From positions 21,709 through 85,708 of the IMG/VR virus record IMGVR_UViG_3300036832_001295: a stretch of 64,000 nucleotides of DNA; one strand, written 5' to 3'. A program made the translations under genes and the position numbers. The notes under the pieces were generated by a model that ran no database searches, had not been told where the DNA came from, and worked only from the letters and a program-made list of their open reading frames with translations. The stretch comes from a virus. Positions 3,855 to 20,667 of the stretch are shown one piece after another; the stretch's first letter is position 1, and each line of letters opens with the position of its first letter.

Positions 3855-6800
3855 TCACTTCCAGGCCGGGACGTAGACGGTGGTGCCGTCGCTAGAGGTC
3901 ATCCTGAACCACGTGTAGGGGGCGGCGGCCACAGTGGCCGGGCTGTTCGCGCCGAGCGCGGCGCTGGCTGCGCCGGTCGCGTTGTTGCTGATCTTCACTT
4001 GATGGTTGGCGGTGCCCAGCGCGATCTGGTTGGCCACCGCGGTACTGGCCCCGGCCGCGCCGCTGTCCGTGCCGATGGCCACCGAACCGTTGCCGCTGGC
4101 CACCGTGGCATAGCCGAGCGCGGTGGTATAGGCCAACGACGCGCCGCTGAAGTTGGCCTGGTAGCCCAGCGCGGTGTTGCCCGAGCCGTCGACCAGCGAG
4201 AACAGCGGCCGGTAGCCGACCCCGGTGTTGCTGGCCCCGGTGGTGGCGCTGCGTACCGCGTTGTCGCCGACCCCGGTGTTGTTGATGCCGGTGGTCACCG
4301 AGAGCAGCGCCGCGTAGCCCAGCGCGGTGCAGGCCACTGCGCCAGCGGCGTTGTTCAGCGCCTGGTAGCCGACCGCCACCATGCTGCCGACGGTGGTGTT
4401 CTTCATCATCGCCTGCCAGCCGATGGCGACGTTCTGCGCCCCGGTGGTGTTGCCGAGCAACGCGCTGCTGCCGATCGCGATGTTGAATGCAGCGTCGGTA
4501 AGGCTCTTCAGTGCGTTGAATCCGACGGCGACGTTCTCTGTGGCGTTGACGGTTGGCGCGCCAGCGCTCATCGCCTGGGCACCTACCGCGATGTTGTAGT
4601 TGGCGATCAGGGTGTTGCCCGCGTAGTAGCCGAGCGCGACGTTCTGCTGGCCGGTCGTCGTGTTCTGCAGCGCGCTCATCCCGACTGCGGTGTTGTACGC
4701 CCCGGAAGCCTTGTAGAGCGCGTTCTGGCCGATCGCGACACTGCCCGACCCGGCGGTGGCGATCTGCATCGCGTTCATCCCGATGGCGACTTGCCCGTCG
4801 CTGGCGGTGGCGGTGCTCAGCGCGTTCGCCCCGATGGCGACGCTGTTGTTGCTGCCAGCGACTATCGCCGACAGCGCGCCGTTGCCGAGCGCGGTGTTGC
4901 CGGAGCCGGTGGTGTTGTTCTGCATCGCGTTATAGCCGACCGCGGTGTTGCTGTTGCCGATCGTGTTCTGTAACGCCTGCGATCCGACGCCGACATTGAA
5001 ACTGCAAGCGTCGGACAGGTTCATCGCGTTGTAGCCGAGCGCGACATTGTTGTTGCCGGTCAGCATCGCCGCGAGGGTGCTGGTGCCGACCGCCACGATG
5101 GAGCCAGCGGTGGTGGCGGCGGTCATCGCGTTGTAGCCGACAGCGGTGTTGTTGACTCCGGTGGTGCTGGCTTTGAGGGCGTTGTTGCCGACTGCGACGC
5201 TGATGCAGCTAGCAGAAGTGTTGGCGGCGAGCGTCGAGTAGCCGACTGCGACCGACCCGCCGATGCCATTGGCGTTCTGCATCGCGAGGGAGCCGACGGC
5301 GGTGTTGGTGCCACCGGAGACGTTCGCTGACAAGGCGAGAATGCCGACCGCGGTGTTGTTGCTGCCGGTCTGGTTCAGGGACAGCGCGGCGTGCCCGAGC
5401 CCAGTGTTGCTGGCCCCGGTGGTATTCACCTGCAACGTGGTGTAGCCCATCGCGATGTTGCCGGTGCCGCTGGTGTTGGCTTTCAGCGCGTTCAGCCCGA
5501 CCGCGACCAGCCCGGTGGCGGTGTTGCTTTGCAACGCGCTGACGCCGATCGCGGTGCAGGAACTGGCCGTCGTGGTCCCGGACATAGCGTTATAGCCGAG
5601 CGCAGTATTGGAAGCGCTGGTGGTGACCGCTGCCAGCGCGCCGAGGCCGACGGCGGTACTGCTGCTGCCGTCTACGTTCGCGGCCAGCGCGCTGCTGCCG
5701 ACCGCGGTGTTGCTGCCTCCGGTGGTGTCCGCAGCGAGCGCGACGTATCCGAGGGCGGTGTTGCCCGTCCCGCTGGTGTTGGCCTTCAGCGCGTTCAGCC
5801 CGACCGCGGTCTGGTTGCTGACGGTGGTGTTCTGCAGCGCGGCGTAGCCGACCGCGACATTCTGCGACCCGCTGGACAACTGCATGCAGGTGCTGCCGAC
5901 CGCGGTGTTGTAGCCGGTGGTGTTGGTGTTGCCGGACAGGGCGTTGACTCCCACCGCGACGTTATTAGCGCCGGTCACGGTGGTAGACAGTGCGGCGTAG
6001 CCGAGCGCGGTGTTGTTGATGCCGGAGGTGTTGGCGTTCAGCGCCTGGTAGCCAAGCCCAACATTGGCGGTGCCGGTGGTGTTCTGCTGCATCGCGGCGT
6101 AACCGACCGCGGTCTGGTTGCCCGAGGTCGTGTTCTGCAGGGCGAGGTAGCCCACTGCGACATTCGCGCCCCCGGACGTGGACAGCTGCATCGCGGCGTA
6201 GCCGAGTGCGGTGTTGGTGCCACTGCTGGTCGCTCCGGCCAGCGCCGACCAGCCGAACGCGGTGTTGCCAGTGGCCGTGGCGTTCTGCAACGCGGATGTG
6301 CCAACTGCGGTGTTGTTCGCGCCGCTGACGTTGGCGAGTAGCGCGTTGTAGCCGAGCGCGACGTTGCTGCCGCCGGTCGTGTTGTTGGATAGGGCGGCAT
6401 TGCCGACCGCAGTGTTCGCAGCGCCGGTCGTGTTCAGGCAGAGCGCCTGGATGCCGAACGCGGTGCCCGCGACGGTGCTGTTCTGCAGCGCCCGGTAGCC
6501 CATCGCGGTGCCGCTCGGGCCGGTGCAGAGTTGCATCGCCAGTTCACCGACGGCGGTGTTGAAGTTGCCGGTGGCGTTGGTGGCCAGCGCGAGGTAGCCG
6601 ACGGCGGTGTTGTTGACGGCGGTGGTGAGCGCGGCGAGGGCGCTGTTGCCGACGGCGGTGTTGTTGCCGGAGCCGGTGGTCTGGGCAGCCATTGCGCCCA
6701 GCCCGAAGCCTTCGTTGTGGTTGGCGGGTTCACCGAAGACTTGGGACAGCACTGAGCCGTGCGCGTCGATCCCGACCACGTTGGCCCAACCGATGGCGTA

Positions 6801-8411
6801 GTCGGTGCCGCTGGTCTTGGTCAGCGCCTGCCCGGTGGTGCCACCGGCAGGCACACCTATCACGGTCTGATCTGCGGTCACCTGGACCCGGAAGTAGGCG
6901 ATGTCGGTCGCACTGGCGGTCATCGAGACCTGGAACTGGTTATTCGACTGCGCGGACACCCGAGCCTGCAACGCCAGCGTCTGCCCATGGGTGATCGGAT
7001 TGGCGTTCACCACGGCCAGCGCAGCGGTCTGCGTCGTGTTGGCGGCGACGTTGACGAAGGCGTTGCGGGTCAGCGGTGCCGCCCCGTTGACCGAGACGCC
7101 GAACTCCACCGTCCCGGTCCGGGTGGTGGTGTTCGTCAGGGTCATCTGGGCGGAGATCGTCGCGTCCCCGACCGGGATGTCGCGTCCGACCACCAACGAC
7201 AGGCCGAGATCCACCCACGGAGAAGGTGCGGCGACACCCGCAGCCTTGATCGTCACGCCGGTCTGGGTCGACGCGCTGATCTGGTAGCCGAGGGCCGGTG
7301 GCGCACCCCAGCCGAGGATCGCGTTGTTCGAGTTGTCGAAGCCCGCGATCACCAGCGGCGAGTCCTGCTGGCCGCCGAGCATGGTGGACATGGGCATCTG
7401 CGAGTCCAGCAGCAGACGCGGTGCACTGACGATGATGCCGTCCGGGGACGAGACGCCCAGCGCGTCGGCGTTCGGGTTCTCTACGTCGGGGACGATGCCG
7501 ATGGTGCCGGACGAGGCGTCGTAGGCGATCCCCAACGCGCCGGTCATCGTGTCCCCGGTGGTGTTCACGTACAACCCGTCCGCGATGGCCTGGTCAAGAC
7601 CGGGCACCCCGACCTCCTGCCAGGGCGACCAGGCCTGCGTGGTGCTCCCGGTGGTGTAGGTGCGGAAGAAGCGTCGCCCGGAGGTCAACCCGGTCCAGGT
7701 CTGGGTCTGGGCCTGCGGCGTGTCGGTGGCGGTGCCGTCCACCCAGTCGTAGTCGGCCAGGTCGACGGTCAGGATCGCCTGCTCACCGGTCAGCGGGCCG
7801 CTGGCGGCGCGGTAGCTTCCGTTCATGAACACGTGATCCGGGTCGGCGCTGACATTGCCGGTGAACGACAACGGGGTCCACACCGACCAGAGGTTCTGCT
7901 GGCTGTGCCGCACCCACACGTCGTTGTTCAGGTCGGTGGTGTGTGGGCCGTCCGCGATCCACGTCTGGCTGATGTGCCGCAGTGACGGGTCGGCCCCCTG
8001 GCCGGTGCCGAAGACCTGCAAGACGCCGGTCGGGTCCTGCCCCTCGATGTCGACGCTGGCGACGTCCATCGCGATCGGCAACTGGGTGCGGTGGATCAGG
8101 TAGAAGCCCGGTTCGGTCAGGTCGTCGGCGGTGCCGACCCCGGTCATGTCCTGCAGCTGCCCCAGGCCGCCGTCGACCCCGGTCATGTCATCGGTGTCCA
8201 CCCAGAAATCGCCGGTCTGTGCCGTGCCCGGCTCGTCCGGCTGGATGAAGACGTCCGGACCGTCCTCGCCGTCCGTACCCGGTGGACCTGCCGGGCCCGG
8301 TGGACCAGGCGGGCCGGGCGAGGTGGGCCAGACGTCGACATTCCCAGCGCCGCCGGTCCCGCCCAGGTCGAAGTCGATCGGGGTAGAGGCAGTTACCCGG
8401 TAGTTGGTCAT
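3855..8411 (-). CDS. Giant tail fibre with knob domains and about 880 aa of NNTAVGY repeats
   Basis: A 1518-aa protein. The frame is open further upstream, but ATG 8411 overlaps the previous stop (ATGA) and the upstream part is a shadow of that gene. Modules: short collagen stretch (about 35-55); two pyocin-knob-like segments (about 85-260; PGFYLIHRTQLP...WSVWTPL and NGSYRAA...WSPWQEV); a beta region; then about residues 570-1450 of 20-24 residue repeats of the form N-NTAVGY-AL-(T)TG. The tail returns to AIGT..GA motifs. The repeats resemble trimeric-autotransporter head repeats and should form a long beta-helical shaft. Likely the main host-adhesion fibre. Confidence 0.85.
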   Translation of the reverse strand: MTNYRVTASTPIDFDLGGTGGAGNVDVWPTSPGPPGPPGPAGPPGTDGEDGPDVFIQPDEPGTAQTGDFWVDTDDMTGVDGGLGQLQDMTGVGTADDLTEPGFYLIHRTQLPIAMDVASVDIEGQDPTGVLQVFGTGQGADPSLRHISQTWIADGPHTTDLNNDVWVRHSQQNLWSVWTPLSFTGNVSADPDHVFMNGSYRAASGPLTGEQAILTVDLADYDWVDGTATDTPQAQTQTWTGLTSGRRFFRTYTTGSTTQAWSPWQEVGVPGLDQAIADGLYVNTTGDTMTGALGIAYDASSGTIGIVPDVENPNADALGVSSPDGIIVSAPRLLLDSQMPMSTMLGGQQDSPLVIAGFDNSNNAILGWGAPPALGYQISASTQTGVTIKAAGVAAPSPWVDLGLSLVVGRDIPVGDATISAQMTLTNTTTRTGTVEFGVSVNGAAPLTRNAFVNVAANTTQTAALAVVNANPITHGQTLALQARVSAQSNNQFQVSMTASATDIAYFRVQVTADQTVIGVPAGGTTGQALTKTSGTDYAIGWANVVGIDAHGSVLSQVFGEPANHNEGFGLGAMAAQTTGSGNNTAVGNSALAALTTAVNNTAVGYLALATNATGNFNTAVGELAMQLCTGPSGTAMGYRALQNSTVAGTAFGIQALCLNTTGAANTAVGNAALSNNTTGGSNVALGYNALLANVSGANNTAVGTSALQNATATGNTAFGWSALAGATSSGTNTALGYAAMQLSTSGGANVAVGYLALQNTTSGNQTAVGYAAMQQNTTGTANVGLGYQALNANTSGINNTALGYAALSTTVTGANNVAVGVNALSGNTNTTGYNTAVGSTCMQLSSGSQNVAVGYAALQNTTVSNQTAVGLNALKANTSGTGNTALGYVALAADTTGGSNTAVGSSALAANVDGSSSTAVGLGALAAVTTSASNTALGYNAMSGTTTASSCTAIGVSALQSNTATGLVAVGLNALKANTSGTGNIAMGYTTLQVNTTGASNTGLGHAALSLNQTGSNNTAVGILALSANVSGGTNTAVGSLAMQNANGIGGSVAVGYSTLAANTSASCISVAVGNNALKASTTGVNNTAVGYNAMTAATTAGSIVAVGTSTLAAMLTGNNNVALGYNAMNLSDACSFNVGVGSQALQNTIGNSNTAVGYNAMQNNTTGSGNTALGNGALSAIVAGSNNSVAIGANALSTATASDGQVAIGMNAMQIATAGSGSVAIGQNALYKASGAYNTAVGMSALQNTTTGQQNVALGYYAGNTLIANYNIAVGAQAMSAGAPTVNATENVAVGFNALKSLTDAAFNIAIGSSALLGNTTGAQNVAIGWQAMMKNTTVGSMVAVGYQALNNAAGAVACTALGYAALLSVTTGINNTGVGDNAVRSATTGASNTGVGYRPLFSLVDGSGNTALGYQANFSGASLAYTTALGYATVASGNGSVAIGTDSGAAGASTAVANQIALGTANHQVKISNNATGAASAALGANSPATVAAAPYTWFRMTSSDGTTVYVPAWK

Positions 8412-9163
8412 GAAGTCACCGTCACATCCCCGACCGCGATCGTGACGATCCCCTCCGGCAGGCTCAGGCGGCACTCCCACCGACAGACCGGCGGCAAAGT
8501 CACGGTGATGGTGTGGTCCAACATCAGGTGGATCACGTTGACGTTGACGGACAGCACGGTGAACACACCCAGCTGTTGACCGCCGTGGAAGACGTCGGCG
8601 GCGACCATGTCGCCGCTCAGGTCGGCGGGGGCCCCGGTGTCCTGGTCGGTGAGAGTGAGGTCGAGGAAGTAGTCGTCGCCGCCCCGGAAACGGATGTTGA
8701 CGATGGCCGGTTCGGCTTCCACGGTCTGCGGCGGTTCGGTCGGTTCCGGCGGGCCCGGCGGTATCTCCCCGGCAGGCAACGGCGGCCAGGCGGTGACCCG
8801 CGGGGTGACGGTGAGCACCCCGGAGGCGATCTTGGCGGTGTCCCCGTCGACCAGCCCGAAGCAGTCCCAGAAGCCGCGCCCGGAGGGCATCAGGGCGGTC
8901 ACCGAGGCAGCCAGGTGCAGCAGCCATTGACCGACCGCGATGATCTGGATCAGGCCGTCGGCGGTGCCGGTGACATCCAGCCGGGCCAGCAGTTGGGAGT
9001 CGGGGTTGGTGTCCCGGCGCATCTCGATGACCGGCTCATCGACCGGCAGCGGGGTGACCGCGTCGGAGCGGTAGACCCAGAACGGTTCGGTGAACGCCGC
9101 CCCGCAGGCGATGCTCATCGCCAGCTGGGTGTTGCCGGGCAGCGTGTAGCTGGGCGCGCTCAC
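8408..9163 (-). CDS. Tail/baseplate protein with duplicated beta domain
   Basis: A 251-aa protein. Two halves of about 110 residues, joined by a Pro/Glu linker (about 130-150; PPGPPEPTEPPQ), follow a similar course: a strand giving W/FR, a D..TG.P.DL-type turn, then a closing V.V.P or V.VTS strand. Such duplicated beta-sandwich proteins occur next to fibres in Gram-positive phages (BppU-like). It overlaps the fibre gene by 4 nt, suggesting translational coupling. Likely connects the fibre to the tail tip; function inferred. Confidence 0.55.
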   Translation of the reverse strand: MSAPSYTLPGNTQLAMSIACGAAFTEPFWVYRSDAVTPLPVDEPVIEMRRDTNPDSQLLARLDVTGTADGLIQIIAVGQWLLHLAASVTALMPSGRGFWDCFGLVDGDTAKIASGVLTVTPRVTAWPPLPAGEIPPGPPEPTEPPQTVEAEPAIVNIRFRGGDDYFLDLTLTDQDTGAPADLSGDMVAADVFHGGQQLGVFTVLSVNVNVIHLMLDHTITVTLPPVCRWECRLSLPEGIVTIAVGDVTVTS

Positions 9164-9188: not shown

Positions 9189-9854
9189 TTAGCCCATCAC
9201 GCAGACGTGCAGCATGTAGGTCTGGCTCTTCTCCTTGATCTGGATCGTCTGTGGGTGGAACGCCTCCGGGCAGAACGGACCGGCGGGCCCCTGCGGTCCT
9301 TGGACACCTTGCTTGCCCCGCGGGCCCGGTGCGCCACGTGGTCCGGCGGGACCCGCGGCCCCTTGTTTGCCGGTGGCCCCACGCTGGCCCTGTGCGCCCT
9401 GCTGTCCGGTCGCGCCGCGTGCCCCCTGCTGCCCGGTCGCGCCCTGCTGTCCTTGTGCGCCACGCGCTCCCGCGGCACCCTGGGCACCGGACGCGCCGGG
9501 TGCGCCTTCGGGGCCTACCCTCCCAGGTTGGCCGGAGGTCCCCGGCGCTCCGTTGCGTCCCGCCGAGCCGGTTGCCCCGCTGGCCCCGGGACTGCCTGCC
9601 GTCCCGGCTGGCCCGCTCGGCCCGGCACTGCCGGGGGTGCCGTTGGGTCCCATCAGCCCGGCACTGCCCGCCGGTCCCGGTGACCCGGCCGGACCGGCAG
9701 GACCGCGGGGGCCGGGAATCCCGGCGTTGGCCTGCGCCTGCTTCTGGCCCAGCACCAGCGCCGCGACCGAGACGCTCAGCAGCAGCCCGGCGATGATGAA
9801 CGCCGCGCTAGCTTTGCCGAAGATCCGGTCCGCCCAACTCGTCACCTGGTTCAT
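9189..9854 (-). CDS. Membrane-anchored collagen-like protein
   Basis: A 221-aa protein. Residues about 15-38 form one hydrophobic helix (AFIIAGLLLSVSVAALVLG). They are followed by about 50 Gly-X-Y triplets (GIPGPRGPAGPAG...) and a short C-terminal segment with two Cys (FCPEAF, MLHVCVMG). ATG 9854 is preferred because it overlaps the end of the holin-like gene by 47 nt and precedes the membrane helix. It lies between lysis and fibre genes. It may be an envelope or virion collagen-like stalk; no precise role known. Confidence 0.7.
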   Translation of the reverse strand: MNQVTSWADRIFGKASAAFIIAGLLLSVSVAALVLGQKQAQANAGIPGPRGPAGPAGSPGPAGSAGLMGPNGTPGSAGPSGPAGTAGSPGASGATGSAGRNGAPGTSGQPGRVGPEGAPGASGAQGAAGARGAQGQQGATGQQGARGATGQQGAQGQRGATGKQGAAGPAGPRGAPGPRGKQGVQGPQGPAGPFCPEAFHPQTIQIKEKSQTYMLHVCVMG

Positions 9855-10116
9855 CGTCGTCCTCCTTCTCCGGTTCGGGTTCGGGCACCGCGATGCCATG
9901 TTCGGCCAGCAGCATCATCAGTCGATAGTTGGCCAGTTCGGCCTGCACCCGACCGTGCCGCTCCTCGGCAAGCATCCCCTCGACCTCGCCTAGCTCGCCC
10001 TTGGCCGCCCGGCGTTCCTTGCTGCGCGCCGCCCGGATGGCCAGCAGCACTCCGGCGACGGCGGTGATGATCGCAGCCAGCCCGGTGACGATGGCGACGA
10101 TGTTGAAGGTGTCCAT
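9808..10116 (-). CDS. Holin-like small membrane protein
   Basis: A 102-aa protein with one N-terminal membrane helix (about residues 5-27; IVAIVTGLAAIITAVAGVLL), a basic stretch (RAARSKERRAAKG), a predicted amphipathic coiled coil (40-70) and an acidic C-terminus. It lies directly after the endolysin gene. Size, topology and position fit a one-helix holin or a lysis accessory protein. The ATG start agrees with a GGGAGGGCG ribosome-binding site. Confidence 0.55.
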   Translation of the reverse strand: MDTFNIVAIVTGLAAIITAVAGVLLAIRAARSKERRAAKGELGEVEGMLAEERHGRVQAELANYRLMMLLAEHGIAVPEPEPEKEDDDEPGDELGGPDLRQS

Positions 10117-10133: not shown

Positions 10134-11102
10134 TCACCAGTACAAGATCCGCCACCAGGCTCGGGTGACGGTGGCCGCCTTGCTGGCCGAGACGAGCAGT
10201 CGCAGGTTGGTCTTGTCCCCGACCGTGCCGACCTGGCTGTAGACGAACTCGCTGCTGGCGGTGGGGGCGGCCAGCAGCTGCCCGCGCGGGAAGATGGACT
10301 TCTGGTTGTTGCCGCGGTCCAGGTTCTGCACCTGCACGTAGAGAACGCCGTCCGGGCCGAGCCCGGCGACGTAGAGCCAGGCGGTGAGGCTGATGAACCG
10401 GGCGGTGTTGGGCAGGATCGCCGATGCCCCGCCGGAGGCGGTTGTCGGGTTCCAGCCGTCCCACTGCAGGTAGGTGTTGGTAGGCGCGGCGGGCACCTTG
10501 GTGGGTTTCTTCGCGGAGGCGGTCAGGTACAGCTGGGCGGGCATGTCGACCTCCGGCGGGGGAGTGGGGACGGGGCTGGTGGGCAGAATCGCGGTGCCCA
10601 GCGACAGGCAGTGCTTGTAGCGGGTGGTGCGGTCGGCCAGCCCGTTCAACCCGCCGTTGATGGCCCGGGTGGCCCCGACGATGTCGCCCTGGTCGGAGAG
10701 GGTGTTCAGCTGCGGGCGGGACACCGTCCAGTACCAGACCGGGCCGAGCCAGGCCCATTGGTCGGCAGCCAGGGTGGGCGGGTGGTTGAGGAACAGATTC
10801 GGGTCGTTGAGCAGGTTCTTGCGGGCGCACCACTGCCCGAAGGCGGCGTAGTTGTAGTCCCAGGTGATCTGGATGAAGGTGCGCCCGATGTAGGGCGGGT
10901 AGGTTGCCCCGGGCGGTGGCTGGATTTCCTGCTTGTAGCGCAGCGAGCCGGATTCATGCCCGATCTGGGCCAGGAACATGGCGGCCCGGCGCACGTTGGT
11001 GATCTCGCCGATGACCATCGCGGCGTTGGCCCCGTTGACCAGCTGGCTGGCGCGGGGCAAGTCCAGCCCGGGCATCGCCTTGACGAGGGTGGCGGCGTCC
11101 AC
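10134..11102 (-). CDS. Endolysin, GH19 chitinase/muramidase-type
   Basis: A 322-aa protein. Residues about 1-165 match the glycoside hydrolase 19 lysin fold: AQIGHESGSLRY carries the likely catalytic Glu, followed by YIGRTFIQITW..NYAAFG and the AINGG motif near 140. Such domains cut the glycan backbone of peptidoglycan. Residues about 185-322 form a separate beta-rich domain, probably for cell-wall binding. The start is GTG with AAGGA very close, so a downstream start cannot be excluded. It is followed by the holin-like gene. Confidence 0.8.
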   Translation of the reverse strand: MDAATLVKAMPGLDLPRASQLVNGANAAMVIGEITNVRRAAMFLAQIGHESGSLRYKQEIQPPPGATYPPYIGRTFIQITWDYNYAAFGQWCARKNLLNDPNLFLNHPPTLAADQWAWLGPVWYWTVSRPQLNTLSDQGDIVGATRAINGGLNGLADRTTRYKHCLSLGTAILPTSPVPTPPPEVDMPAQLYLTASAKKPTKVPAAPTNTYLQWDGWNPTTASGGASAILPNTARFISLTAWLYVAGLGPDGVLYVQVQNLDRGNNQKSIFPRGQLLAAPTASSEFVYSQVGTVGDKTNLRLLVSASKAATVTRAWWRILYW

Positions 11103-11294: not shown

Positions 11295-11942
11295 ATGACC
11301 GCAGCACCTACTGCTGCTCTGCACATCCCACGCATCAACGTGGAGACCCTGCTGGTGCCGATCCTCGGGACCAGCCCGCTGCTCGTGCACCAGTGGTCCC
11401 AGAAGGCCAAGCTGCAGATGCTCAACGCGCAGCAGGGCATCAAGACCATCAAGGAACCCCGCGACCCGCAGTCGGAGTACGAGGCCAGCCTGTACCGGGC
11501 CGGGGACGACGGCTACGGCATCCCGTCGGTCGCCTTCAAGGCGGCCACCGTGTCCGCGGCCCGCGTCTACGGCAAGGCGGTCCGGATGACCGAACTGCGC
11601 CAGTTCCTGTTCTTCCGCGGCAAGATGTACAAGGGCAACAACGGCAAGTTCAGCTGCAACCAACAGCTGTTCCTGCTCGACGGCACCCCGCAGATGCGCG
11701 AAGACATGGTCACCGTCGGCATCTCCGGCACCGACCTGCGCTACCGGGGCGAGTTCACCGAGTGGTCGACCACGCTGACCGTCGAGTACATCAAGTCCTC
11801 GATCACCAAGGAGTCGGTGCTCGGCATCATCGAGGCGGCCGGAACCACCGTCGGGGTCGGCGAGTGGCGGCCGGAGAAGGACGGCGAGTTCGGCACCTTC
11901 AAGCTCGACCCGTCCCGTGAGGTGCAGGTCATCTCGGCATGA
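11295..11942 (+). CDS. Conserved phage-type protein of unknown function
   Basis: A 215-aa soluble protein, first of a three-gene plus-strand operon, with the ribosome-binding site AGGAGG 8 nt before ATG. The N-terminus has the pattern ETLLVPILGTSPLLVHQWS.KAK, which I have seen in uncharacterised phage and prophage proteins. The centre reads GYGIPSVAFKAATVSAAR and the C-terminus GVGEWRPEKDGEFGTFKL. No catalytic motif is evident. It overlaps the next gene by 4 nt (ATGA). Confidence 0.7.
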   Translation: MTAAPTAALHIPRINVETLLVPILGTSPLLVHQWSQKAKLQMLNAQQGIKTIKEPRDPQSEYEASLYRAGDDGYGIPSVAFKAATVSAARVYGKAVRMTELRQFLFFRGKMYKGNNGKFSCNQQLFLLDGTPQMREDMVTVGISGTDLRYRGEFTEWSTTLTVEYIKSSITKESVLGIIEAAGTTVGVGEWRPEKDGEFGTFKLDPSREVQVISA

Positions 11943-12307
11943 GCGGCGACCCGCAGCAGTGGTTGCGGACGGAGTTGAAGGGGGTGCGCGTCCGGCAGGG
12001 CGCGCTCACCCCGGCCACGTTGCTGGCTGACGTGACCCAGACCGGCCCGACGCATCCGCTCTATGACCGGTTCCTGTGGTCGGTGGACACGCCGCAGGAC
12101 AAGGCCCAACTGGCCCGCATGCTGATCCACGAGGCCCATCCGGAGCAGGCCTGCCGCCAGGCCACCCTGGACGAGGTACAGGCCGGGTTCGCCCGGCTGG
12201 GGTTTTCCACCGGCAGCTTGCAGACCAACTACCACCGTGAGGACCACATTCTGTTCACGGTGGACGACGCACAGCGGCTGCTGGCCGCATTAGGGGGACA
12301 GTCATGA
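11939..12307 (+). CDS. Unknown protein, paralogue of its neighbour
   Basis: A 122-aa protein. Residues about 20-62 (GALTPATLLADV...HPLYDRFLW, then a Q..LARMLI stretch) parallel residues about 24-68 of the next gene (GELTPQAVLAEV...HPLYDRFEW). This is a small domain seen in uncharacterised phage proteins. Start and stop overlap both neighbours by 4 nt. Function unknown. Confidence 0.7.
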   Translation: MSGDPQQWLRTELKGVRVRQGALTPATLLADVTQTGPTHPLYDRFLWSVDTPQDKAQLARMLIHEAHPEQACRQATLDEVQAGFARLGFSTGSLQTNYHREDHILFTVDDAQRLLAALGGQS

Positions 12308-12759
12308 GCTTCTCCGCCTACGAGGCGCAGCGGGAACTGATCACGCAGCTGGAAGAGGTTCGCGAACACCGCGGCGAACTGACCCCGCAGGCGGTGTTGG
12401 CCGAGGTCGAGGAGACCGGCAAGCGGCACCCGCTCTACGACCGGTTCGAGTGGAACAACCGGGTCGCCGGGCACGGCTACCGCCTCGACCAGGCGCACCG
12501 GCTGATCATGTCCGTGAAGGTGATCTTCCGGGGACCGACCGACGAGGAACGCAAGATCCGCAAGTACGTCGCGGTGCCGCAGCCGATGGCCCACCAACCC
12601 AACTACGAGCCGATCGAGGACGTCGCGATGGACGACCTGAAACGCAAGCTGGTGCTGCAGGACGCGGAACGGCGCTGGAAGGCGTTGCGGACCCAGTTCG
12701 GCCACCTGCAGGAGTTCATCGACCTGGTGCTGGGCGACCTGAACGGCAAGGCCAGCTGA
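12304..12759 (+). CDS. Unknown protein with HPLYDRFEW domain
   Basis: A 151-aa protein. The N-terminal LTP..VL.E......HPLYDRFEW...A..YRL.QA.RLI pattern is shared with the preceding gene. The C-terminal 50 residues are a charged helix (DDLKRKLVLQDAERRWKAL). It is the last gene of the operon and is followed by two hairpins. Function unknown; both proteins may act together. Confidence 0.7.
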   Translation: MSFSAYEAQRELITQLEEVREHRGELTPQAVLAEVEETGKRHPLYDRFEWNNRVAGHGYRLDQAHRLIMSVKVIFRGPTDEERKIRKYVAVPQPMAHQPNYEPIEDVAMDDLKRKLVLQDAERRWKALRTQFGHLQEFIDLVLGDLNGKAS

Positions 12760-12762
12760 GCT

Positions 12763-12793
12763 AAACACGCTCGGCCAGGTGCCGATCGTGTTT
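12763..12793 (+). terminator. Intrinsic terminator
   Basis: AAACACG-C-TCGGC, loop CAGGT, GCCGA-T-CGTGTTT: a 12-pair stem with one mismatch, ending in TTT, directly after the operon stop codon. Confidence 0.7.
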
Positions 12794-12797
12794 GTCG

Positions 12798-12841
12798 AGA
12801 TCCGGGATGCCCAACCGCGGGGGAGGGAGCATCCCGGATCT
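12798..12841. terminator. Second hairpin (13-bp perfect stem)
   Basis: AGATCCGGGATGC pairs exactly with GCATCCCGGATCT across an 18-nt G-rich loop. It lies just 4 nt after the first terminator and 10 nt before the pentamer repeat. It could back up termination or mark the border of the repeat island. Confidence 0.55.
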
Positions 12842-12851
12842 TCGGCGTCTG

Positions 12852-13253
12852 CGGGCAGGGCTTGGTTCGGCACGGTTCGGCACGGCAGGGCTGGGCAGGC
12901 ACGGCAAGGCTGGGCCCGTCGAGGTTCGGCGTGGCAAGGCCCGGCAGGCCAGGCAGGGTGTGGCACGGCACGTCGTGGCGGGGTTCGGCAGGGCTGGGCA
13001 GGCAAGGCGAGGCACGGCATGGCACGGCCTGGCGCGGCCGGGCAGGCAAGGCGTGGATGGCCCGGCGGGACGTGGCAAGGCGGGGCAGGCACGGCTTGGT
13101 TGGGCACGGCAGGGCTAGGTTCGGCATGGCGGGGCAGGCAGGGCTTGGTGCGGCCAGGCGCGGTTGGGGTTGGCGCGGTGCGGCGGGGCAGGCGTGGCAC
13201 GGCTTGTCATGGCTGGGCAGGGCTGGTCTTGGCGCGGCGTGGCAGGCTGTGCC
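12852..13253. repeat. Degenerate pentanucleotide repeat block A (GG-Y-N-N)
   Basis: About 400 bp in which GG recurs nearly every 5 bp on the plus strand, usually followed by C. The two remaining positions vary freely (CACGG, TTCGG, CAAGG, CGTGG, CATGG). The phase is shifted at intervals by a 4-nt CAGG unit (CAGGCANGG). Stop codons are rare in all six frames, so long false ORFs appear. Nothing supports coding. Confidence 0.85.
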
Positions 13254-13291
13254 GAACAGGTCAAACGGTGATCTGGTTAGGGGGAATCGGG

Positions 13292-13738
13292 ATGAAGATT
13301 CATACGCTGTTGGCGTTGGCCGCGGCCGGGGTGTGCACCGCCGGAATGGTGGTCTTCGCGGCACCGGCCTCGGCGGCGCAGTCGGAGTTGACCCTCAACT
13401 GCACCGGCCTCGGCATGGTGACGGTGGCGACCAACAACAACAACTCATCCGAGCACGGTGGTTGGGGCGCGGCGCAGACCGTGAACATTCCCGGGCACGG
13501 TATCGCGACCTCGTTCTCCGGCACGATTACCGACCTGGTGACCGGCACCAGCGTGAGCTTCACCCAGGTCAAGGGCAACGGCAACGCCAACCAGAACACC
13601 ACCGGGCAACCCACCATGTGCTCACAGACGATCACCGGCACGGTGGTCGACTTCACCGGGGGGTTCATCCCGCCGGGCATGTCGGGCTCTGACCCGGCCA
13701 CCTTCATGCTCACGGTGGGCGTGATTTACAAGGCCTGA
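13292..13738 (+). CDS. Small secreted protein inside the repeat island
   Basis: A 148-aa protein with a clear Sec signal peptide (MKIHTLLALAAAGVCTAGMV..., probable cleavage after ASA near residue 28). The mature part has beta-type sequence, two Cys (CTGLGMV and MCSQTIT) and an Asn-rich stretch (ATNNNNSSEHGG). RBS: AGGGGG 8 nt before ATG. Composition is normal coding, unlike the repeats that begin within 50 nt on both sides. It looks like a cargo (moron) gene. No family recognised; could act on the host envelope or as a superinfection factor. Confidence 0.8.
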   Translation: MKIHTLLALAAAGVCTAGMVVFAAPASAAQSELTLNCTGLGMVTVATNNNNSSEHGGWGAAQTVNIPGHGIATSFSGTITDLVTGTSVSFTQVKGNGNANQNTTGQPTMCSQTITGTVVDFTGGFIPPGMSGSDPATFMLTVGVIYKA

Positions 13739-13739
13739 C

Positions 13740-16590
13740 TCGGCAGGCAGGGCTTGGCGGGGCATGGTTCGGCGCGGCATGGCACGGTGTGGCAGCCAGG
13801 GCACGGCGCGGCACGGCACGGCCTGGCTCGGCGCGGCAGGCGCGGCGCGGCGCGGCGGGGTCGGGCCCGGCCTGGTGCGGCGAGACATGGCGCGGCGAGG
13901 CAGGCATGGTGTGGCTCGGCCTGGCTCGGCAAGGCAGGGCAGGCACGGCATGGTTGGGCTCGGCGCGGTTGGGCGTCGCAGGGCTTGGCAGGCAGGGCGA
14001 GGTGTGGCGGGTCCAGGCATGGCGCGGCAGGCATGGCCCGGCGCGGCTCGGTACGGCAAGGTGGGGCGTGGCAGGCGGGGTTGGGTTCGGTTTGGCATGG
14101 CGCGGTTGGGCACGGCACGGCTCGGCAGGCGTGGCTTGGCGTGTCGAGGCGGGGCTGGGTTCGCTGGGCCAGGCGGGGCAGGGCAGGCGTGGCTGGGCGG
14201 GTTCCGGCAAGGCAAGGCATGGCCAGGCAGGCACGGCCCGGTTCGGTATGGCACGTCGTGGCCAGACTTGGCTTGGCAGGCGTGGCTTGGTGTGGCACGG
14301 CCGGGTCAGGCACGGTTGGGCGCGGCAGGCTCGGCGAGGCGTGTCATGGCAAGGCTCGGCTAGGTAGGGCACGGCAGCCGAGGCCTGGTGAGGCAGGGCA
14401 ACGCGAGGCATGGCTAGGCCCGGCAGTCGGGGCGTGGCATGACCCGGTGTGGCAGGTCACGGCAAGGCGTGGCGCGGCAGGCACGGCTAGGTCGGGCGCG
14501 GATCGGCGTGGCATGGCGTGGCAGCTAAGGCGCGGCGGGGCACGGCACGGCTGGCTAGGCAAGGCTCGGCCCGGTGCGGCATGGCAGGTCAGGGCAGGCG
14601 TGGCAGGGTGCGGCAGGGTCAGGCGCGGCAGGGCTAGGCGGGGCTTGGCAGGCAAACGTGGTTTAGCTGGGCCCGGCGTGCCGGGGCACGGTGGGGCGTG
14701 GCAGGCAGAGCAAGGCTCGGCTTGGTTCGGCGTGGCATGGCAGGCAGGGCTAGGCAAGGTATGACAAGGCTGGGTGCGGCATGGCGTGGCTGGCATTCGT
14801 GGTTTGGCTGGGCGGGCCGCGGCGGGGCAGGCAAGGCATGGCTTGGCATCGCATGGTGTGGCTCGGCTAGGCGCGGCAGGGCAGGCAGGCGAGGCCGGGC
14901 AGGCAGGGCTGGATTCGGCCGGGCATGGCTTGGCGCGGTTTGGCAGGCAAGGCAGGCATGGTGAGGCACGGCAGGGCACGGCGCGGCTAGGCGCGGCAGG
15001 CGAGGCAGGGCCCGGCTAGTCCAGGTGCGGCGGGTCGCGGCCGGGTTCGGCAGGGCAGGCTCGGTTGGGCTGGGCGGGGCGTGGTTTGGCAAGGCAGGGT
15101 TGGGCACGGCAGGCAGGCAGGGCGTGGTTGGGCTCGGGCGGCTGGGCACGGCAGGGCAGGCACGGCGGGTCCGGGCGAGGCTCGGCAAGGTCCGGCCTGG
15201 CGGGGTAGGGCCTGGCAGGCGAGGCGGGGTGTGGCGGGGCCTGGCGGGTCAAGGCACGTCATGGCGCGGCAGGCATGGCGAGGCAGGGCTTGGTCCGGCA
15301 GGGCACGTCCCGGCTTGGCTTGGCAGGCTCGGCCAGGCGCGGTTGGGCGAGGCATGGCAAGGCAGGGCTCGGCCAGGCAGGCATGGCCCGGCGAGACCCG
15401 GCTCGGCTCGGTGCGGCATGGCGCGGCATGGCAGGCAGGGCGCGGCGCGGCCAGGCGAGGCCGGGCTTGGCTCGGTCCGGCCTGGCGAGGCGAGGCAGGC
15501 ATGGCCCGGTATGGCACGGTGCGGCACGTCCCGGCGTGGTATGGCAGCCGAGGCCCGGCTTAGCGTGGCAGGTCTTGGCGAGGCCTGGTGTGGCACGGCA
15601 AGGCAGGGCGTGGCAGGCATCGCGTGGTGTGGCACGGCCCGGTGGGGCACGGCTTGGCAGGCATCGCACGGCGCGGCATGGCAGGTCGAGGCAAAGCCTG
15701 GCGGGCACGGCAGGCATGGCCCGGTCCGGTTCGGCACCGCACGGCGGGGCATGGCAGGCATGGTTCGGCTTGGCGTGGTGTGGTGGGGCACGGCAGGGCA
15801 CGGCAGGCAGGGCTCGGCGTGGTTCGGCACGGCACGGTGTGGCGTGGCTTGGCGGGCAGGGCTCGGCCGGGTTGGGTACGGCGTGGTCAGGCGAGGCGCG
15901 GCGCGGTGTGGCAGGCAGGGCTCGGTACGGCGGGGCATGGCAGGGTGTGGCTAGGCCCGGCGGGCATGGCATGGCGCGGCAAGTCCAGGCGAGGCGCGGC
16001 GAGGCGTGGCGAGGCGAGGCGAGGCAGGCAAGGCAAGGTCGGGCAGGGCACGGTATGGCCCGGTGTGGTTGGCATGGCGCGGCATGGCAGGCAGGGCGCG
16101 GCAGGCTGGGCTCGGCACGGCTAGGCGCGGCTCGGCAAGGCGTGGTGGGGCAGCCGGGGCTGGGCGAGTTGGGCATGGCCGGGCGCGGCGTGGCAGTCCA
16201 GGCAGGGCAGGACGAGGCAGGGCTAGGCGCGGCTTGGCAGGGCAGGCTTGGCCCGGCGGGGCATGGTTGGGCTAGTCAAGGTCGGGCATGGCAGGCAGGG
16301 CAGGGCTTGGCCCGGCAACGCAGGGCTTGGCCCGGCGCGGCAGGCACGGCAGGGTTAGGCGGGGCGGGGTCCGGCTAGGCCTGGCAGGCAAGGCGGGGCA
16401 GGTCCCGGCTTGGTTGGGCACGGCTCGGCGCGGCAGGCGTGGCAGAGTTCGGCGAGGCTAGGCGTGGCAAGGCCCGGCTAGGCAGCCACGGCGGGGCCTG
16501 GCCAGGCATGGCAAGGTGAGGTGCGGCGCGGCATGGCAGGCGTGGCTTGGCGTGGCACCGTGTGGCCACGCGTGGCACGGCACGGCAGGC
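13740..16590. repeat. Degenerate pentanucleotide repeat block B (GG-Y-N-N)
   Basis: About 2850 bp of the same repeat as block A and in the same orientation (G-rich plus strand). Units seen include CACGG, CATGG, CGCGG, CTTGG, CTCGG, CCCGG, TGTGG and CTAGG. A phase-shifting CAGG recurs about every 40-60 bp. It starts 2 nt after the secreted-protein stop codon and ends at a hairpin. Apparent ORFs here, such as Pro/Cys/Arg-rich minus frames, follow from the 15-bp (5 bp x 3) super-period and are not genes. Confidence 0.85.
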
Positions 16591-16609
16591 TCGGAAAACC
16601 GGGCCTGCC
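16584..16609 (-). terminator. Terminator of the portal/endolysin operon
   Basis: GGCAGGC-T-CGG, loop AAAA, CCG-G-GCCTGCC forms a strong hairpin immediately after the last minus-strand gene, at the junction with repeat block B. No long U tract. Confidence 0.55.
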
Positions 16610-16796: not shown

Positions 16797-17591
16797 TCAG
16801 TAGGTGAACAGCCGGGTCCAGTCGCCCCGCCACACCTGGCCGACATGCTTGCTGCGCGGGGTGTGCTTCTTCTGCCACTTGGTCACCGCGGCGGTAGTAG
16901 TTGCTCCGTAGACGCCCGGGGTCCACTTGCCGCCGAAGCCGAGGGCCGCCAGCCGGTTCTGGATGGCCTGGATGTCCGGGCGTTCGGCGACGTAGTAGCC
17001 GCCGTGGCTGGTGTTCGGCCCGGCGATCGGCCCGAAGTAGTGGCCCTTCTTCATGTAGGAGGGCCAGCGGCGGCGCAACTTCTTCTCCTTGCCCGGTTTG
17101 GCCGGTGCCTTGGGGGCCGAACCCTGCCCGCAGAAGACCTGCGCGACCCGCTGCCAGGCGGGTCCGTCGTTGACGTAGGCGCGGTGCCCGGACAGATGCA
17201 CGTGCCAAAGATGTGATTTGTCCGAACTGACCCATTTCAGGGTCTGCACGTCCAGCCCGGTGACGTCCTTGCCGTTGACGGTGCCGAAGAACTCGCGCAG
17301 CGTCTGCATCCGCACGTCGTGCGCCTTGGCGGCGTTGATCAGCCGTTGGGTGACCTTGCGCATCTGCGCCGCGGGCAGCGTGACGTCCAGGGCGGACGCG
17401 GCCTGCCCGTCGCCCTTGCGGTCGATCGGTTGGGTCACCGAATAGTCGTCCTTGGGCAGCACGTCCCGGCAACGGTGGTAGCCGTAGGCGTGGCTGCGGT
17501 CCCCGACGATGCCGGACAGCTGCGCCTGCGGGATGAAATGGTGGATGGTGTTGTAGGCCGCCTGGATCGCCTGCGGGGCATATTCGCTCAT
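16797..17591 (-). CDS. Endolysin, M15-type peptidase with peptidoglycan-binding domain
   Basis: A 264-aa protein. The catalytic domain (about 20-155) shows the zinc-peptidase M15 pattern: SHAYGYHRCRD (His34 or His39), SALDV (Asp69) and HLWHVHLS (His130/His132). These enzymes cut D-Ala-containing peptide stems. A basic linker (160-180) leads to a peptidoglycan_binding_1-like domain (about 205-262; DIQAIQNRLAALGF...VYGATTTAAVTKWQ). It lies downstream of the portal gene, 6 kb from the GH19 lysin. It could be a virion-associated lysin or the second lysis enzyme. Confidence 0.8.
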   Translation of the reverse strand: MSEYAPQAIQAAYNTIHHFIPQAQLSGIVGDRSHAYGYHRCRDVLPKDDYSVTQPIDRKGDGQAASALDVTLPAAQMRKVTQRLINAAKAHDVRMQTLREFFGTVNGKDVTGLDVQTLKWVSSDKSHLWHVHLSGHRAYVNDGPAWQRVAQVFCGQGSAPKAPAKPGKEKKLRRRWPSYMKKGHYFGPIAGPNTSHGGYYVAERPDIQAIQNRLAALGFGGKWTPGVYGATTTAAVTKWQKKHTPRSKHVGQVWRGDWTRLFTY

Positions 17592-17606: not shown

Positions 17607-17849
17607 TCAGCCCACACCGTCACCGGGCAGGGCAACCGTAACCCGGCCTCCCGTTATCCACTGCCCCCAGACCGACCTGATCCGGGGACCGGGCGGCGGC
17701 AGCACCGGCACCTCGACGTTGACCAGCGCCCGGCAGCACCGGCAGCGGTACTCCCGGTAGGCGGCACCATCCAGCGTGATGCAGGACCGCTCGTCACTGT
17801 CCAGGTCCTGCTGCCCGCAGTTCGGGCAGACCGCGCCGATCTCACACAT
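17607..17849 (-). CDS. Zinc-ribbon protein
   Basis: An 80-aa protein with paired cysteine knuckles CPNCGQQ (residues 8-11) and CRCC (36-39), probably one zinc ribbon. The C-terminal half is hydrophobic beta (SVWGQWITGGRVTVALPG). Its ATG overlaps the end of the portal gene by 8 nt. Role unknown. Confidence 0.65.
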   Translation of the reverse strand: MCEIGAVCPNCGQQDLDSDERSCITLDGAAYREYRCRCCRALVNVEVPVLPPPGPRIRSVWGQWITGGRVTVALPGDGVG

Positions 17850-20667
17850 CCTCTTCCTCTTCCTCCTCGTCGCCGTAATGGGTGTCCCCGGCCAGCTTCG
17901 GCACCGCGGAGGTGTCCAGATACTTGCGCATTCCGTACACCTTCGGGTCCCCGAAACGCCCGGTCGGCCGGTAATGGGTCGGGTCGTCTTCCTCGGAGTT
18001 GTCCGGGGCGATCCAGTGCCGTTTGGTGACCACGCTGATGCCGAAGCGCTGCCCCGGCTGGTACCCGGCCAGCTTGCTCAGCTTGGCCGCCTTCTTCCGG
18101 GGCCGTTTGCCGTCCTTGTTGTCCTTCGGCGCGTCCTCGCGCTCCTCGTCGGACTCCTCCGGGCCGGACTCCTGGCCGGGCATCGGGGCGGGCAACCCCA
18201 ACGCCGGGTTGCCGACCGGCGGGGCGTTGATGTCGCCTTGCTCGGCCATCATCGCCTGCTCCGGGTCCGGCGACATCACCGGGTTGTCGTCCACCCCCAT
18301 GCCCAGCGAAGGCACCGCCGCGTCGTTGGCGTTGTAGACCGGCGAGGGCTGGCTGCCCGCCTCGATCGCCTTCGGGGCGAAGTCGGCGGCCAGGTCCGCC
18401 GGGATCGGGTAGCCCTCCCGTTGCAGGGACTGGAAGATCTTGCGGCGGGTGTCCTGCTCGGCGACCGCCAGGGCCACCGCCTCCTCGCTACGCTGCTCGA
18501 TGGCCTCGTTGAACTCGATGCCGGTGGTGGACAGCCGCTGCTTGTACGGGATCGGCACCCCGGCCGCGGCGAGGGTCTCCACGAACTGCCGCTCGGTCTC
18601 CTCATCGGAGATGTTCAGCGTCTTGAAGGTCAGCCGCGGGATCAGCAGCTTGGGCTGTTCGATGATGCGTTCCTCGCCGGACTCCTCGTCTATCTCATAG
18701 ATCTCCTCGGTGATCAGGTACCGTTTCCCGCCGCGCACCTCGTAGTCGAAATGCTCCTGCGCCTCGGCGACGATCGCGGCCCGGTCGAAGACGAACTTGG
18801 CCAGCATCCGCTGGTAGTGGGTCAGCAGCTGGGTGACCACATCCCTGTTCAAGGCATCCGCGGCGTAGGTCTCCCCGGCCTGCGCGCCGGTCAGCATCGT
18901 CTGAGACAGCCCGAACACCATCAAGATCCGTTCGGTGATCCGGTCGAAGTCGTTGGACAGGTCCGGCACGTTCTCCCGGCCGAAGACCGGCTGCATGTCG
19001 ATCGCCCAGTGGTAGGTCAGCACCCGGAAATCGGCGGCCAGCGCCGCGTCCAGGGAGGCGTTGAACTCCTCCATGTCCTCCTGAGTGGGGATCCACGGGG
19101 TGCCGGTGCCCAGGTCCTGCGCGGTCGCGCCCAGCTTGGTCAGGATCAGCGGGGTGTAGAGCCGATCGGCGATGGAGTCCAGCGCGGAGTTCAGCATCTC
19201 CTCCTGGATGATCATCCGGAAGGCCCGCATCAGCAGCGGGATGCCACGGTTAGAAAACCGGTCGGCCTTGAACCGCAGCTGCTTCAGGATGATGTTGGAG
19301 ACGGGCATCAGCGCGTCTTCCTGGGCGTAGTTCAGCAGTTCCGGGAACTGCCGGACCAGCTGCGTGTACTGCCAGTGCGGGGTGCGGCTGGTGAGCACCT
19401 TGCGCAGCGACTCGGGCAGCCGCATCAGGTACCGCGGGTCGTTCAGGAACAGCGACTTCTCGATCTCCACGTCATCCGGGTTGATCAGTTCGTCGGCTTC
19501 CCAGACGCCCAGCGTGTCGTTCCAGCCGCCCAGCGCCCAGGACTCGCCGGACAACCAGTACTCGGTGCCCAGGTCGAGCAGGAAGTCCTCGAAGTTCAGC
19601 TGGTCGAAGAACAGGTCGGAGTAGAAGTCGATCAGCTGCTGGTCCTGGCATTCGAAGGCCATGCCCTGCATCGGCAGCTTGGAGTAGACGTCGATGCAGG
19701 CCGGGATCACCGGGTGGGTGACGTAAAGCAGGCGGCAGTTCTTGGACTGGTAGCCCCAGGCGACGTAGTTGCCGGTGCTGGTCTGCATGCTGATCACGGT
19801 GGCGGTGCCCGCGTCGGTAACCGAGAGCACCTTGTCCGGCCCGCCGTGCGGCAGGGTGTACCAGCGCCCGACCGCGTTCATCCCGGACTCCACCGAAGAC
19901 AGCCCGAACAGTTCGTCGCCTTCGTTGGCGACGAAGTACTCGGTAGTGATCTTGCCGGTGTCGATCGGGTGACCGCGCAGGTCGACCTGCTGACGGCCGA
20001 ACCACGGGTTGAACCAGCGGTGGTCGGGGGTGCAGGTGATGACCTGGCCGGAGGCCATGGTCAGCTTCACCACCGGCACGTCATCGCGGGACAGAGTGGC
20101 CAGCACGGTGGCCGGGAGGTAGTGCACGCCCAGCCCGCCGTTGCTGTGCAGCGTGTACTTCCAGCCCTGCACCGCATCGCCGGGGGTGATCTCACCCAGC
20201 GGTTTGGAGGTGCCGTCGGCCATCAGGATCGGCGCGTCCGGGGTATTGCAGAACTCCCGGATCCGTTCCAACTCGACCGGGTCGGTGAAGTTGAAGGGCA
20301 GGTTGTTCTGCCGCCAGTACCACATCGGGTCACGCGGGCGGGCGGTGGCGATCTGCATCGAGCCACCGGTCCCGTAGGCCGCGGTGCGGCGCATCGACGT
20401 GCCGACCGCCCGGGAGCCGCTCAGCCGGTTGTTGATGGTGCGCTCGGGCAGGTGCGGGGCCCCGAACGGCAACCCGGCAGGGGTGCGCTGGTCGGACTCG
20501 CGGACCCGCCGGGTCGCGACCCGGCGCGGCGACGCGATGTTGGCTCCGGTGCCGGGCAGGTCCGGCAGCGGCACCCGGCGGCCCCGCCGGTCGGTCACGG
20601 AAAAGTCGGCCACGTTACTTCGCGGCCCCAGCCGGGTGACGGGCAGCGGGTCGCCCGCTAGGTTCAC
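17842..20667 (-). CDS. Portal protein precursor with mini-intein
   Basis: A 941-aa precursor; 770 aa after intein removal. It starts with GTG, 11 nt after GGGAGGTGG. The extein reads as a phage portal: YVTHPVIPACIDVYSKLP, LLDLGTEYWLSGESW, the NRDVVTQLLTHYQRML helix, and a FGLSQTMLTGAQAGETYAA segment of DNA-translocating portal rings. The C-terminus (from about 830) is disordered, with an acidic end (GDEEEEEEDV). The intein sits at residues 140-310, early in the fold. The portal forms the dodecameric gate for DNA entry and exit. Confidence 0.85.
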   Translation of the reverse strand: MNLAGDPLPVTRLGPRSNVADFSVTDRRGRRVPLPDLPGTGANIASPRRVATRRVRESDQRTPAGLPFGAPHLPERTINNRLSGSRAVGTSMRRTAAYGTGGSMQIATARPRDPMWYWRQNNLPFNFTDPVELERIREFCNTPDAPILMADGTSKPLGEITPGDAVQGWKYTLHSNGGLGVHYLPATVLATLSRDDVPVVKLTMASGQVITCTPDHRWFNPWFGRQQVDLRGHPIDTGKITTEYFVANEGDELFGLSSVESGMNAVGRWYTLPHGGPDKVLSVTDAGTATVISMQTSTGNYVAWGYQSKNCRLLYVTHPVIPACIDVYSKLPMQGMAFECQDQQLIDFYSDLFFDQLNFEDFLLDLGTEYWLSGESWALGGWNDTLGVWEADELINPDDVEIEKSLFLNDPRYLMRLPESLRKVLTSRTPHWQYTQLVRQFPELLNYAQEDALMPVSNIILKQLRFKADRFSNRGIPLLMRAFRMIIQEEMLNSALDSIADRLYTPLILTKLGATAQDLGTGTPWIPTQEDMEEFNASLDAALAADFRVLTYHWAIDMQPVFGRENVPDLSNDFDRITERILMVFGLSQTMLTGAQAGETYAADALNRDVVTQLLTHYQRMLAKFVFDRAAIVAEAQEHFDYEVRGGKRYLITEEIYEIDEESGEERIIEQPKLLIPRLTFKTLNISDEETERQFVETLAAAGVPIPYKQRLSTTGIEFNEAIEQRSEEAVALAVAEQDTRRKIFQSLQREGYPIPADLAADFAPKAIEAGSQPSPVYNANDAAVPSLGMGVDDNPVMSPDPEQAMMAEQGDINAPPVGNPALGLPAPMPGQESGPEESDEEREDAPKDNKDGKRPRKKAAKLSKLAGYQPGQRFGISVVTKRHWIAPDNSEEDDPTHYRPTGRFGDPKVYGMRKYLDTSAVPKLAGDTHYGDEEEEEEDV
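19738..20250 (-). other. Mini-intein (171 aa) within the portal gene
   Basis: The insert begins with Cys140 (CNTPDAPILMADGT, intein block A). A block B-like stretch (VITCTPDHRW, with T213/H216) follows, and it ends with a block F/G stretch (TGNYVAWGYQSKN) before Cys311. Removal joins ELERIREF to CRLLYVTHP, restoring a smooth portal sequence. There is no room for a homing endonuclease domain. The penultimate residue is Lys instead of the usual His; Cys1, the terminal Asn and the +1 Cys are all present. Confidence 0.85.

What the first reader, a model, noticed from the sequence alone, without database searches (positions are those of the whole stretch)
12852..16590. Two blocks of a degenerate 5-bp repeat (GG-Y-N-N), about 3.25 kb, around one secreted-protein gene
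GG recurs every 5 bp on the plus strand over 0.4 kb and 2.85 kb while two of five positions are essentially free. A 4-nt CAGG unit resets the phase about every 40-60 bp. This is neither a normal microsatellite (units are not identical) nor coding. The (GG-N3)n order could give two-layer G-quadruplexes, R-loops, a protein-array platform with contacts at half-helix-turn spacing, or a recombination substrate. Both blocks share orientation. I know of no described phage element like this.
Basis: partly seen in the sequence, partly recalled or inferred. Interest (0 to 1): 0.9.

Follow-up and report, generated by a model that had tools for sequence, protein, structure and literature searches.

The report
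Giant VIPR guide-RNA array in phage
The strange 5-base repeat is a very long set of RNA guides that this phage, together with a small CRISPR-like protein encoded next door, probably uses to find and switch off DNA of rival phages; such systems (called VIPR) were first described in 2026, and this is the longest guide set among the 334 array-bearing strands compared here.

Summary
In detail: two same-strand blocks (12854-13249, 13732-16592) of GGY-NN units, with a 4-nt GGCA unit about every 9 units. It is neither a microsatellite nor coding. It is the guide array of a VIPR system (Viral Interference Programmable Repeat; preprint PMC13142463, April 2026). Upstream on the same strand lies a RAMP/Cas7-like gene (11295-11942): its family profile hits PDB 36pp "SUSP1 Vipr" at E=7e-38 and its model matches Csm3-type RAMPs. 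A vap-like gene (12304-12759) follows. Array and vipr travel together: 67/80 viral loci found by the protein carry a sense-strand array (0 antisense), and 79/98 found by the DNA pattern encode vipr. Four arrays were recovered at the published SUSP1 locus as a positive control. Decoding related arrays, row by row between GGCA units, with the published 1-nt skip gave 4 rows with perfect targets (shuffles 0.15; other skips 0); matches end at row boundaries, and six of seven inspected targets have the skipped base at the codon wobble position. What is unusual here is size: 3.26 kb, about 60-70 guide rows, twice the next longest. No target was found for this array's own guides; expression and function are untested.

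The parts
11295..11942 (+). vipr gene, RAMP/Cas7-like protein, 215 aa (phrog_4652)
   Evidence: Family profile hits PDB 36pp SUSP1 Vipr E 7.3e-38, single protein E 7e-7; AF2 model pLDDT 94.4 matches Csm3/type VII RAMPs, E 1e-5; 58% identical to UmaThurman gp39
11939..12307 (+). partial paralogue of the vap-like gene, 122 aa
   Evidence: Weak phrog_15946 match E 0.013; recovered by the family B profile
12304..12759 (+). vap-like accessory gene, 151 aa (phrog_15946)
   Evidence: phrog_15946 E 2.9e-22; present at 76 of 80 Vipr loci; no fold match and no relative in SUSP1
12794..12846 (+). strong RNA hairpin between vap and array
   Evidence: Fold of 12760-12855: -55 kcal/mol, z -5.2
12854..13249 (+). 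guide array block 1, rows of GGY-NN units separated by GGCA
13292..13738 (+). small secreted-protein gene between the blocks, probably cargo
   Evidence: ORF with a signal-peptide-like start; no Pfam, PHROG or phage tblastn match; its stop codon lies in the first array unit of block 2
13732..16592 (+). guide array block 2, 2.86 kb
16585..16608 (+). hairpin closing the array
   Evidence: GCAGGCTCGG-AAAA-CCGGGCCTGC, fold -20.9 kcal/mol, z -2.3

Best explanation
The two blocks are the guide-RNA array of a VIPR system. The array is transcribed on the + strand, the sense strand of the upstream vipr and vap genes (inferred). Each row of about 8-12 GGY-NN units between 4-nt GGCA units is one guide (supported here with relatives). 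Vipr subunits are expected to assemble along the RNA, holding the constant GGY triplets and presenting the NN pairs to DNA (mechanism from the preprint for SUSP1, inferred here). The concatenated NN pairs recognise double-stranded DNA of the form NNxNNxNN, one base skipped per pair, usually the codon wobble base (supported here for related arrays). Binding would repress genes of competing phages or prophages (shown for SUSP1 and in lambda assays in the preprint, inferred here). The small secreted-protein gene between the blocks looks like unrelated cargo.
For: Vipr homology and RAMP fold. Two-way, strand-specific association of array and vipr: 67/80 sense, 0/80 antisense; 79/98 in the other direction; all 31 annotated phage records with an array are among the 34 with Vipr, and the other three also have arrays. 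Positive control: four arrays at the SUSP1 locus, one upstream and three downstream of vipr, as published. Target test with 662 rows of relatives: skip 1 gives 4 rows with a perfect target and 11 with at most 1 mismatch; 40 shuffles mean 0.15 (max 2) and 3.15 (max 8); skips 0, 2, 3 give no perfect target and no excess. Neighbouring rows match at chance, so the 4-nt unit is the guide boundary. Six of seven inspected targets are in frame with the skip at the wobble base. In 12 Cheoctovirus arrays all substitutions between homologous rows are in NN, none in GGY, and whole rows come and go.
Against: No target found for the window's own guides in 3.56 Mb of held DNA or in three exact scans of IMG/VR. 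No 3' tail as in SUSP1 vrRNAs. No transcription data. The target test is of relatives against mostly related loci, on small counts, and shuffles can reach 2 perfect rows.
Confidence: 0.93

Rival explanations
1. A DNA- or RNA-structure element: two-layer G-quadruplexes or an R-loop-prone G-rich strand that regulates replication or transcription.
For: GG every 5 bases on one strand, strong GC skew over the blocks.
Against: Does not predict the constant Y at position 3, the GGCA boundaries, the tie to a RAMP gene or the target matches of relatives.
Confidence: 0.03
2. A non-guide RNA or DNA platform: Vipr coats the repeat for another purpose, for example as a sponge or decoy, and NN is merely unconstrained.
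For: No target known for the window's own guides; the array is far longer than its relatives'.
Against: Unconstrained NN would give no excess of skip-1 matches, no agreement with codon phase and no boundary at GGCA. It could still hold for this one array.
Confidence: 0.04
3. A translated repeat protein or a run of small proteins, as annotated in several phage records.
For: Long chance open frames, since only NN=TA can make a stop; Donkeykong gp48, UmaThurman gp40 and others are annotated there.
Against: TA is not avoided; relatives differ by 5-nt units, which shifts the frame (rows P, Q, S, V).
Confidence: 0.01

Closest known systems
VIPR system of Escherichia phage SUSP1 (type II; PMC13142463, PDB 36pp)
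   Same: Vipr RAMP protein beside long intergenic regions with GGY/NN arrays on the sense strand; homology E 7e-38; same 1-nt-skip decoding supported in relatives of the window array.
   Different: SUSP1 has four short arrays, mostly GGT, each followed by a tail-like stretch; here one 3.26-kb GGC-rich array of about 60-70 rows separated only by GGCA, and an accessory gene not related to anything in SUSP1.
VIPR loci of Gordonia phages UmaThurman, Pipp, Ecliptus, ODay and Mycobacterium Cheoctovirus phages (Donkeykong, Brocalys, Saal and others)
   Same: Same vipr and vap-like families and the same GGCA-separated rows; closest Vipr relatives among named phages, 55-58% identity.
   Different: Their arrays are 0.16-0.35 kb with about 3-8 rows, in the early or regulatory region of temperate phages or between tail genes; the window array is about ten times longer and sits among lysis and head genes.
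Class 1 CRISPR-Cas effectors (Csm3/Cas7 RAMP backbones)
   Same: RAMP fold and, by the preprint's account, a protein backbone along a guide RNA.
   Different: No CRISPR repeats or cas genes here; guide bases are interrupted by GGY.
TIGR-Tas (PMC12045711, abstract only)
   Same: Phage-encoded tandem guide array with an RNA-guided DNA-targeting protein.
   Different: Found from a Cas9 guide-interaction domain, not a RAMP; no GGY/NN code is mentioned in the abstract.

Membership tests
VIPR | Vipr protein: RAMP with RRM core, G-loop and thumb | tested here: met
   PDB 36pp Vipr E 7.3e-38; RAMP fold by Foldseek; glycine-rich GVGEWRP..GEFGTF segment conserved. Thumb not examined on its own.
VIPR | Alternating GGY/NN repeats in the intergenic region next to vipr, on the sense strand | tested here: met
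VIPR | vap accessory gene | tested here: inconclusive
VIPR | vrRNA of 9-16 repeats with a 3' tail (as described for SUSP1 and P. fulva) | tested here: inconclusive
   Rows mostly of 8-12 units end in GGCA without a tail; the preprint states that array architectures vary and include staggered arrays
VIPR | NN pairs read DNA with a 1-nt skip | tested here: inconclusive
   Met for related arrays as a set; no target found for the window's own rows
VIPR | vrRNA is expressed and co-purifies with Vipr; binding represses the target | not testable with these tools
   Needs RNA sequencing, pull-down and reporter assays
Class 1 CRISPR-Cas | CRISPR repeat-spacer array with several cas genes | tested here: not met
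   No CRISPR-like tandem repeat near the module in the repeat list; proteins examined around it match no Cas family
Microsatellite / simple tandem repeat | Units nearly identical, variation spread over all positions | tested here: not met
   Variation confined to positions 4 and 5; all substitutions between relatives in NN

The most novel reading that the evidence does not exclude
A large phage carries an arsenal of some 60-70 VIPR guides in one tail-less array in which a 4-nt GGCA unit alone marks guide boundaries, implying a processing or loading mode different from tailed vrRNAs; and VIPR carriers may protect their own vap gene by switching six-fold codons (one example: L319 encodes the same GLIRSVVAIY as its targets, but with TTA/AGG/AGC).
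Probability: 0.4. Interest if true: 0.72.

Novelty: new member of a known kind. Interest (0 to 1): 0.52.

Why it matters
VIPR is a newly described, possibly pre-CRISPR form of RNA-guided DNA recognition. This array is the longest of the 334 array-bearing strands measured here (3257 nt; next 1576; median 180), so one phage offers many guides and a naturally multiplexed, tail-less architecture. The comparison gives support for the 1-nt-skip code from phages outside the two clades analysed in the preprint, shows what delimits guides in this architecture, and points to Mycobacterium (Cheoctovirus) and Gordonia phages as convenient laboratory models. It also tells annotators that several small 'hypothetical proteins' in phage records are guide arrays.

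Tried and rejected
Microsatellite decay: rejected, because degeneracy is confined to two of five positions. Coding: rejected. TRAP-like RNA ring, single-strand-annealing loader and switch-region-like R-loop: considered before the Vipr homology was found, then dropped. Rfam: one sub-threshold match, mir-8521 on the - strand over the hairpin at 12792-12849, taken as chance. Pfam: nothing for either gene. IMG/VR scans with three window rows: 0 hits each. One Cheoctovirus row: 26 core hits whose extension is at chance level, so taken as chance (the two longest-contig hits are Pseudomonas-type phages). Unfiltered decoding was swamped by identical-unit microsatellites from genome contigs, so later tests used only rows with varied NN from Vipr loci. 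The first extension test past the row end was out of register because of the 4-nt unit; redone. A search for further guides against vipr or vap genes gave 6 rows against 0-3 in shuffles, of which only L319 is clear. Host of the phage not determined (one search failed).

Full report
What is there. The window is bases 21709-85708 of an 85,708-base IMG/VR virus record. Two blocks on the + strand, 12854-13249 and 13732-16592, consist of units GG-Y-N-N. In block 2 the pentamers have G 97%, G 93%, C 84% or T 16%, and two free positions that show no dependence on each other or, beyond noise, on neighbouring units; 58 of 67 four-base units are exactly GGCA and they come about every nine units (row print). 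The 5-base periodicity far exceeds resampled sequence and is absent from the gene between the blocks.

It does not read as a protein. The only unit that creates a stop codon, GGCTA, is about as frequent as base composition predicts, and homologous arrays in Mycobacterium phages differ by whole 5-base units, which shifts any frame. Several phage records nevertheless annotate small 'hypothetical proteins' there.

It is widespread and tied to one protein. In annotated phages, arrays occur in Mycobacterium, Gordonia and one cyanophage genome, beside two conserved genes of unknown function: family A (phrog_4652) and family B (phrog_15946). The window has both just upstream of the array on the same strand: A at 11295-11942 and B at 12304-12759, with a partial B paralogue between them. 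The link holds from both directions: 67 of 80 viral loci fetched by protein A carry a sense-strand array and none an antisense one, and 79 of 98 loci fetched by DNA pattern encode A. In 50,697 phage records, the 31 with an array are all among the 34 with protein A; the remaining three (Ecliptus, ODay, LESphi2) also have arrays on inspection.

What protein A is. A profile from 72 relatives hits the solved SUSP1 Vipr protein (PDB 36pp) at E 7.3e-38, and weakly Csm5; the window protein alone hits it at E 7e-7 in the C-terminal part. The AlphaFold2 model (pLDDT 94.4) matches Csm3 and type VII RAMPs (E 1e-5, probability 1.0). The literature search then found PMC13142463 (bioRxiv 2026.04.26.720920), which describes VIPR: a phage-encoded RAMP, Vipr, and vrRNAs of alternating GGY/NN whose NN pairs read double-stranded DNA with one skipped base. 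As a positive control, the array finder used here, run on the SUSP1 locus, finds four arrays, one upstream and three downstream of vipr and its neighbour gene, as the preprint reports (the two weakest have low scores).

How it most likely works, and what could be tested. Each run of NN between 4-base units was treated as one guide and searched in 3.56 Mb of held DNA, arrays masked. With one skipped base, 4 of 662 rows have a perfect full-row target (40 shuffles: mean 0.15, maximum 2) and 11 have at most one mismatch (mean 3.15, maximum 8); skips 0, 2 and 3 give no perfect target and no excess. The held DNA is mostly flanks of the same kind of loci, so this is a test of relatives against relatives, on small counts. 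The NN rows before and after a matching row match at chance level, so the 4-base unit marks the guide boundary. Seven targets were inspected; in six the longest local frame is on the same strand with the skipped base at the third codon position; the seventh (L261) is ambiguous. The apparent products, judged by eye and not by a family search, include structural phage proteins and a methylase. This agrees with the published code in arrays outside the two clades analysed there.

One case deserves follow-up. A guide in locus L319 matches, in frame and with one mismatch, the vap-like genes of five other VIPR loci, where they encode GLIRSVVAIY (eleven such genes at two mismatches or fewer). L319's own gene encodes the same peptide with TTA, AGG and AGC for Leu, Arg and Ser, giving five mismatches. 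Because the wobble base is skipped, such six-fold codons are the main synonymous way to escape. It is a single case.

Evolution. In 12 Cheoctovirus arrays all substitutions between homologous rows fall in NN and none in GGY (nine pairwise differences, fewer independent events), and whole rows are gained or lost. Both fit guides held in a fixed scaffold.

What differs here. The window array totals 3257 bases with 76 four-base units, the largest of 334 array-bearing strands in the loci held; the next has 1576 bases and the median is 180. Loci are limited by flank length, so longer arrays elsewhere cannot be excluded, and the set includes some ordinary microsatellites. Rows have no 3' tail, unlike SUSP1. 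Strong hairpins precede block 1 and close block 2. The module is a + strand island among - strand late genes (endolysins 10134-11102 and 16797-17591, portal 17842-20667), and the portal is about 38% identical to that of 155-kb Mycobacterium phages. The secreted-protein gene between the blocks has no detected relatives and is probably cargo.

What is not shown. No target was found for the window's own guides. Transcription, processing, Vipr binding and repression are inferred. The accessory gene could not be matched to a published vap, and the VIPR type is unassigned because the preprint's supplement was not available. The preprint mentions staggered arrays with overlapping vrRNAs; this may be the same architecture, so a new variant is not claimed.

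Noticed in passing
L319:7154 (guide row) and L319 vap-like gene from 6627, offset 240: The guide matches vap-like genes of five other VIPR loci with one mismatch in frame (GLIRSVVAIY); L319's own gene encodes the same peptide with TTA/AGG/AGC, giving five mismatches: possible self-protection by six-fold codon switching.
   Followed up: partly
L253, L254, L384, L387, L388, L389 (Donkeykong gp48, UmaThurman gp40, DRBy19 gp51, BobaPhett gp51, Gorge gp53, Florinda_59): Small annotated 'hypothetical proteins' overlap the GGY-NN arrays and are probably spurious gene calls.
   Followed up: partly
L379 (Pseudomonas phage vB_Pae_LESphi2, 4618-4912) and hits H102-H140: Vipr relatives also occur in LESphi2 (three short arrays upstream of the gene) and in many Felixounavirus-type Escherichia and Salmonella phages, annotated as hypothetical proteins.
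   Followed up: no
window 11939-12307: A partial paralogue of the vap-like gene overlaps vipr and the full-length copy by 4 bases at each end.
   Followed up: no
window 13725-13760 and L260-L262 array starts: The stop codon of the gene before the array lies inside the first array units with a shared GGCCTGAnnCGGCAGG sequence, after the secreted gene in the window and after vap in L260-L262, hinting at a common array leader.
   Followed up: no
window 9189-9899 -, and 3855-8927 -: Collagen-like tail-protein gene on the - strand (PHROG tail families) near a long repetitive - strand frame of 1690 aa.
   Followed up: no
L139, L187, L213, L216 (genome-contig loci): Vipr relatives also lie in assemblies labelled as cellular, for example a Fibrobacteres MAG (L139) and an alphaproteobacterial MAG (L187); whether these are prophages was not checked.
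   Followed up: no
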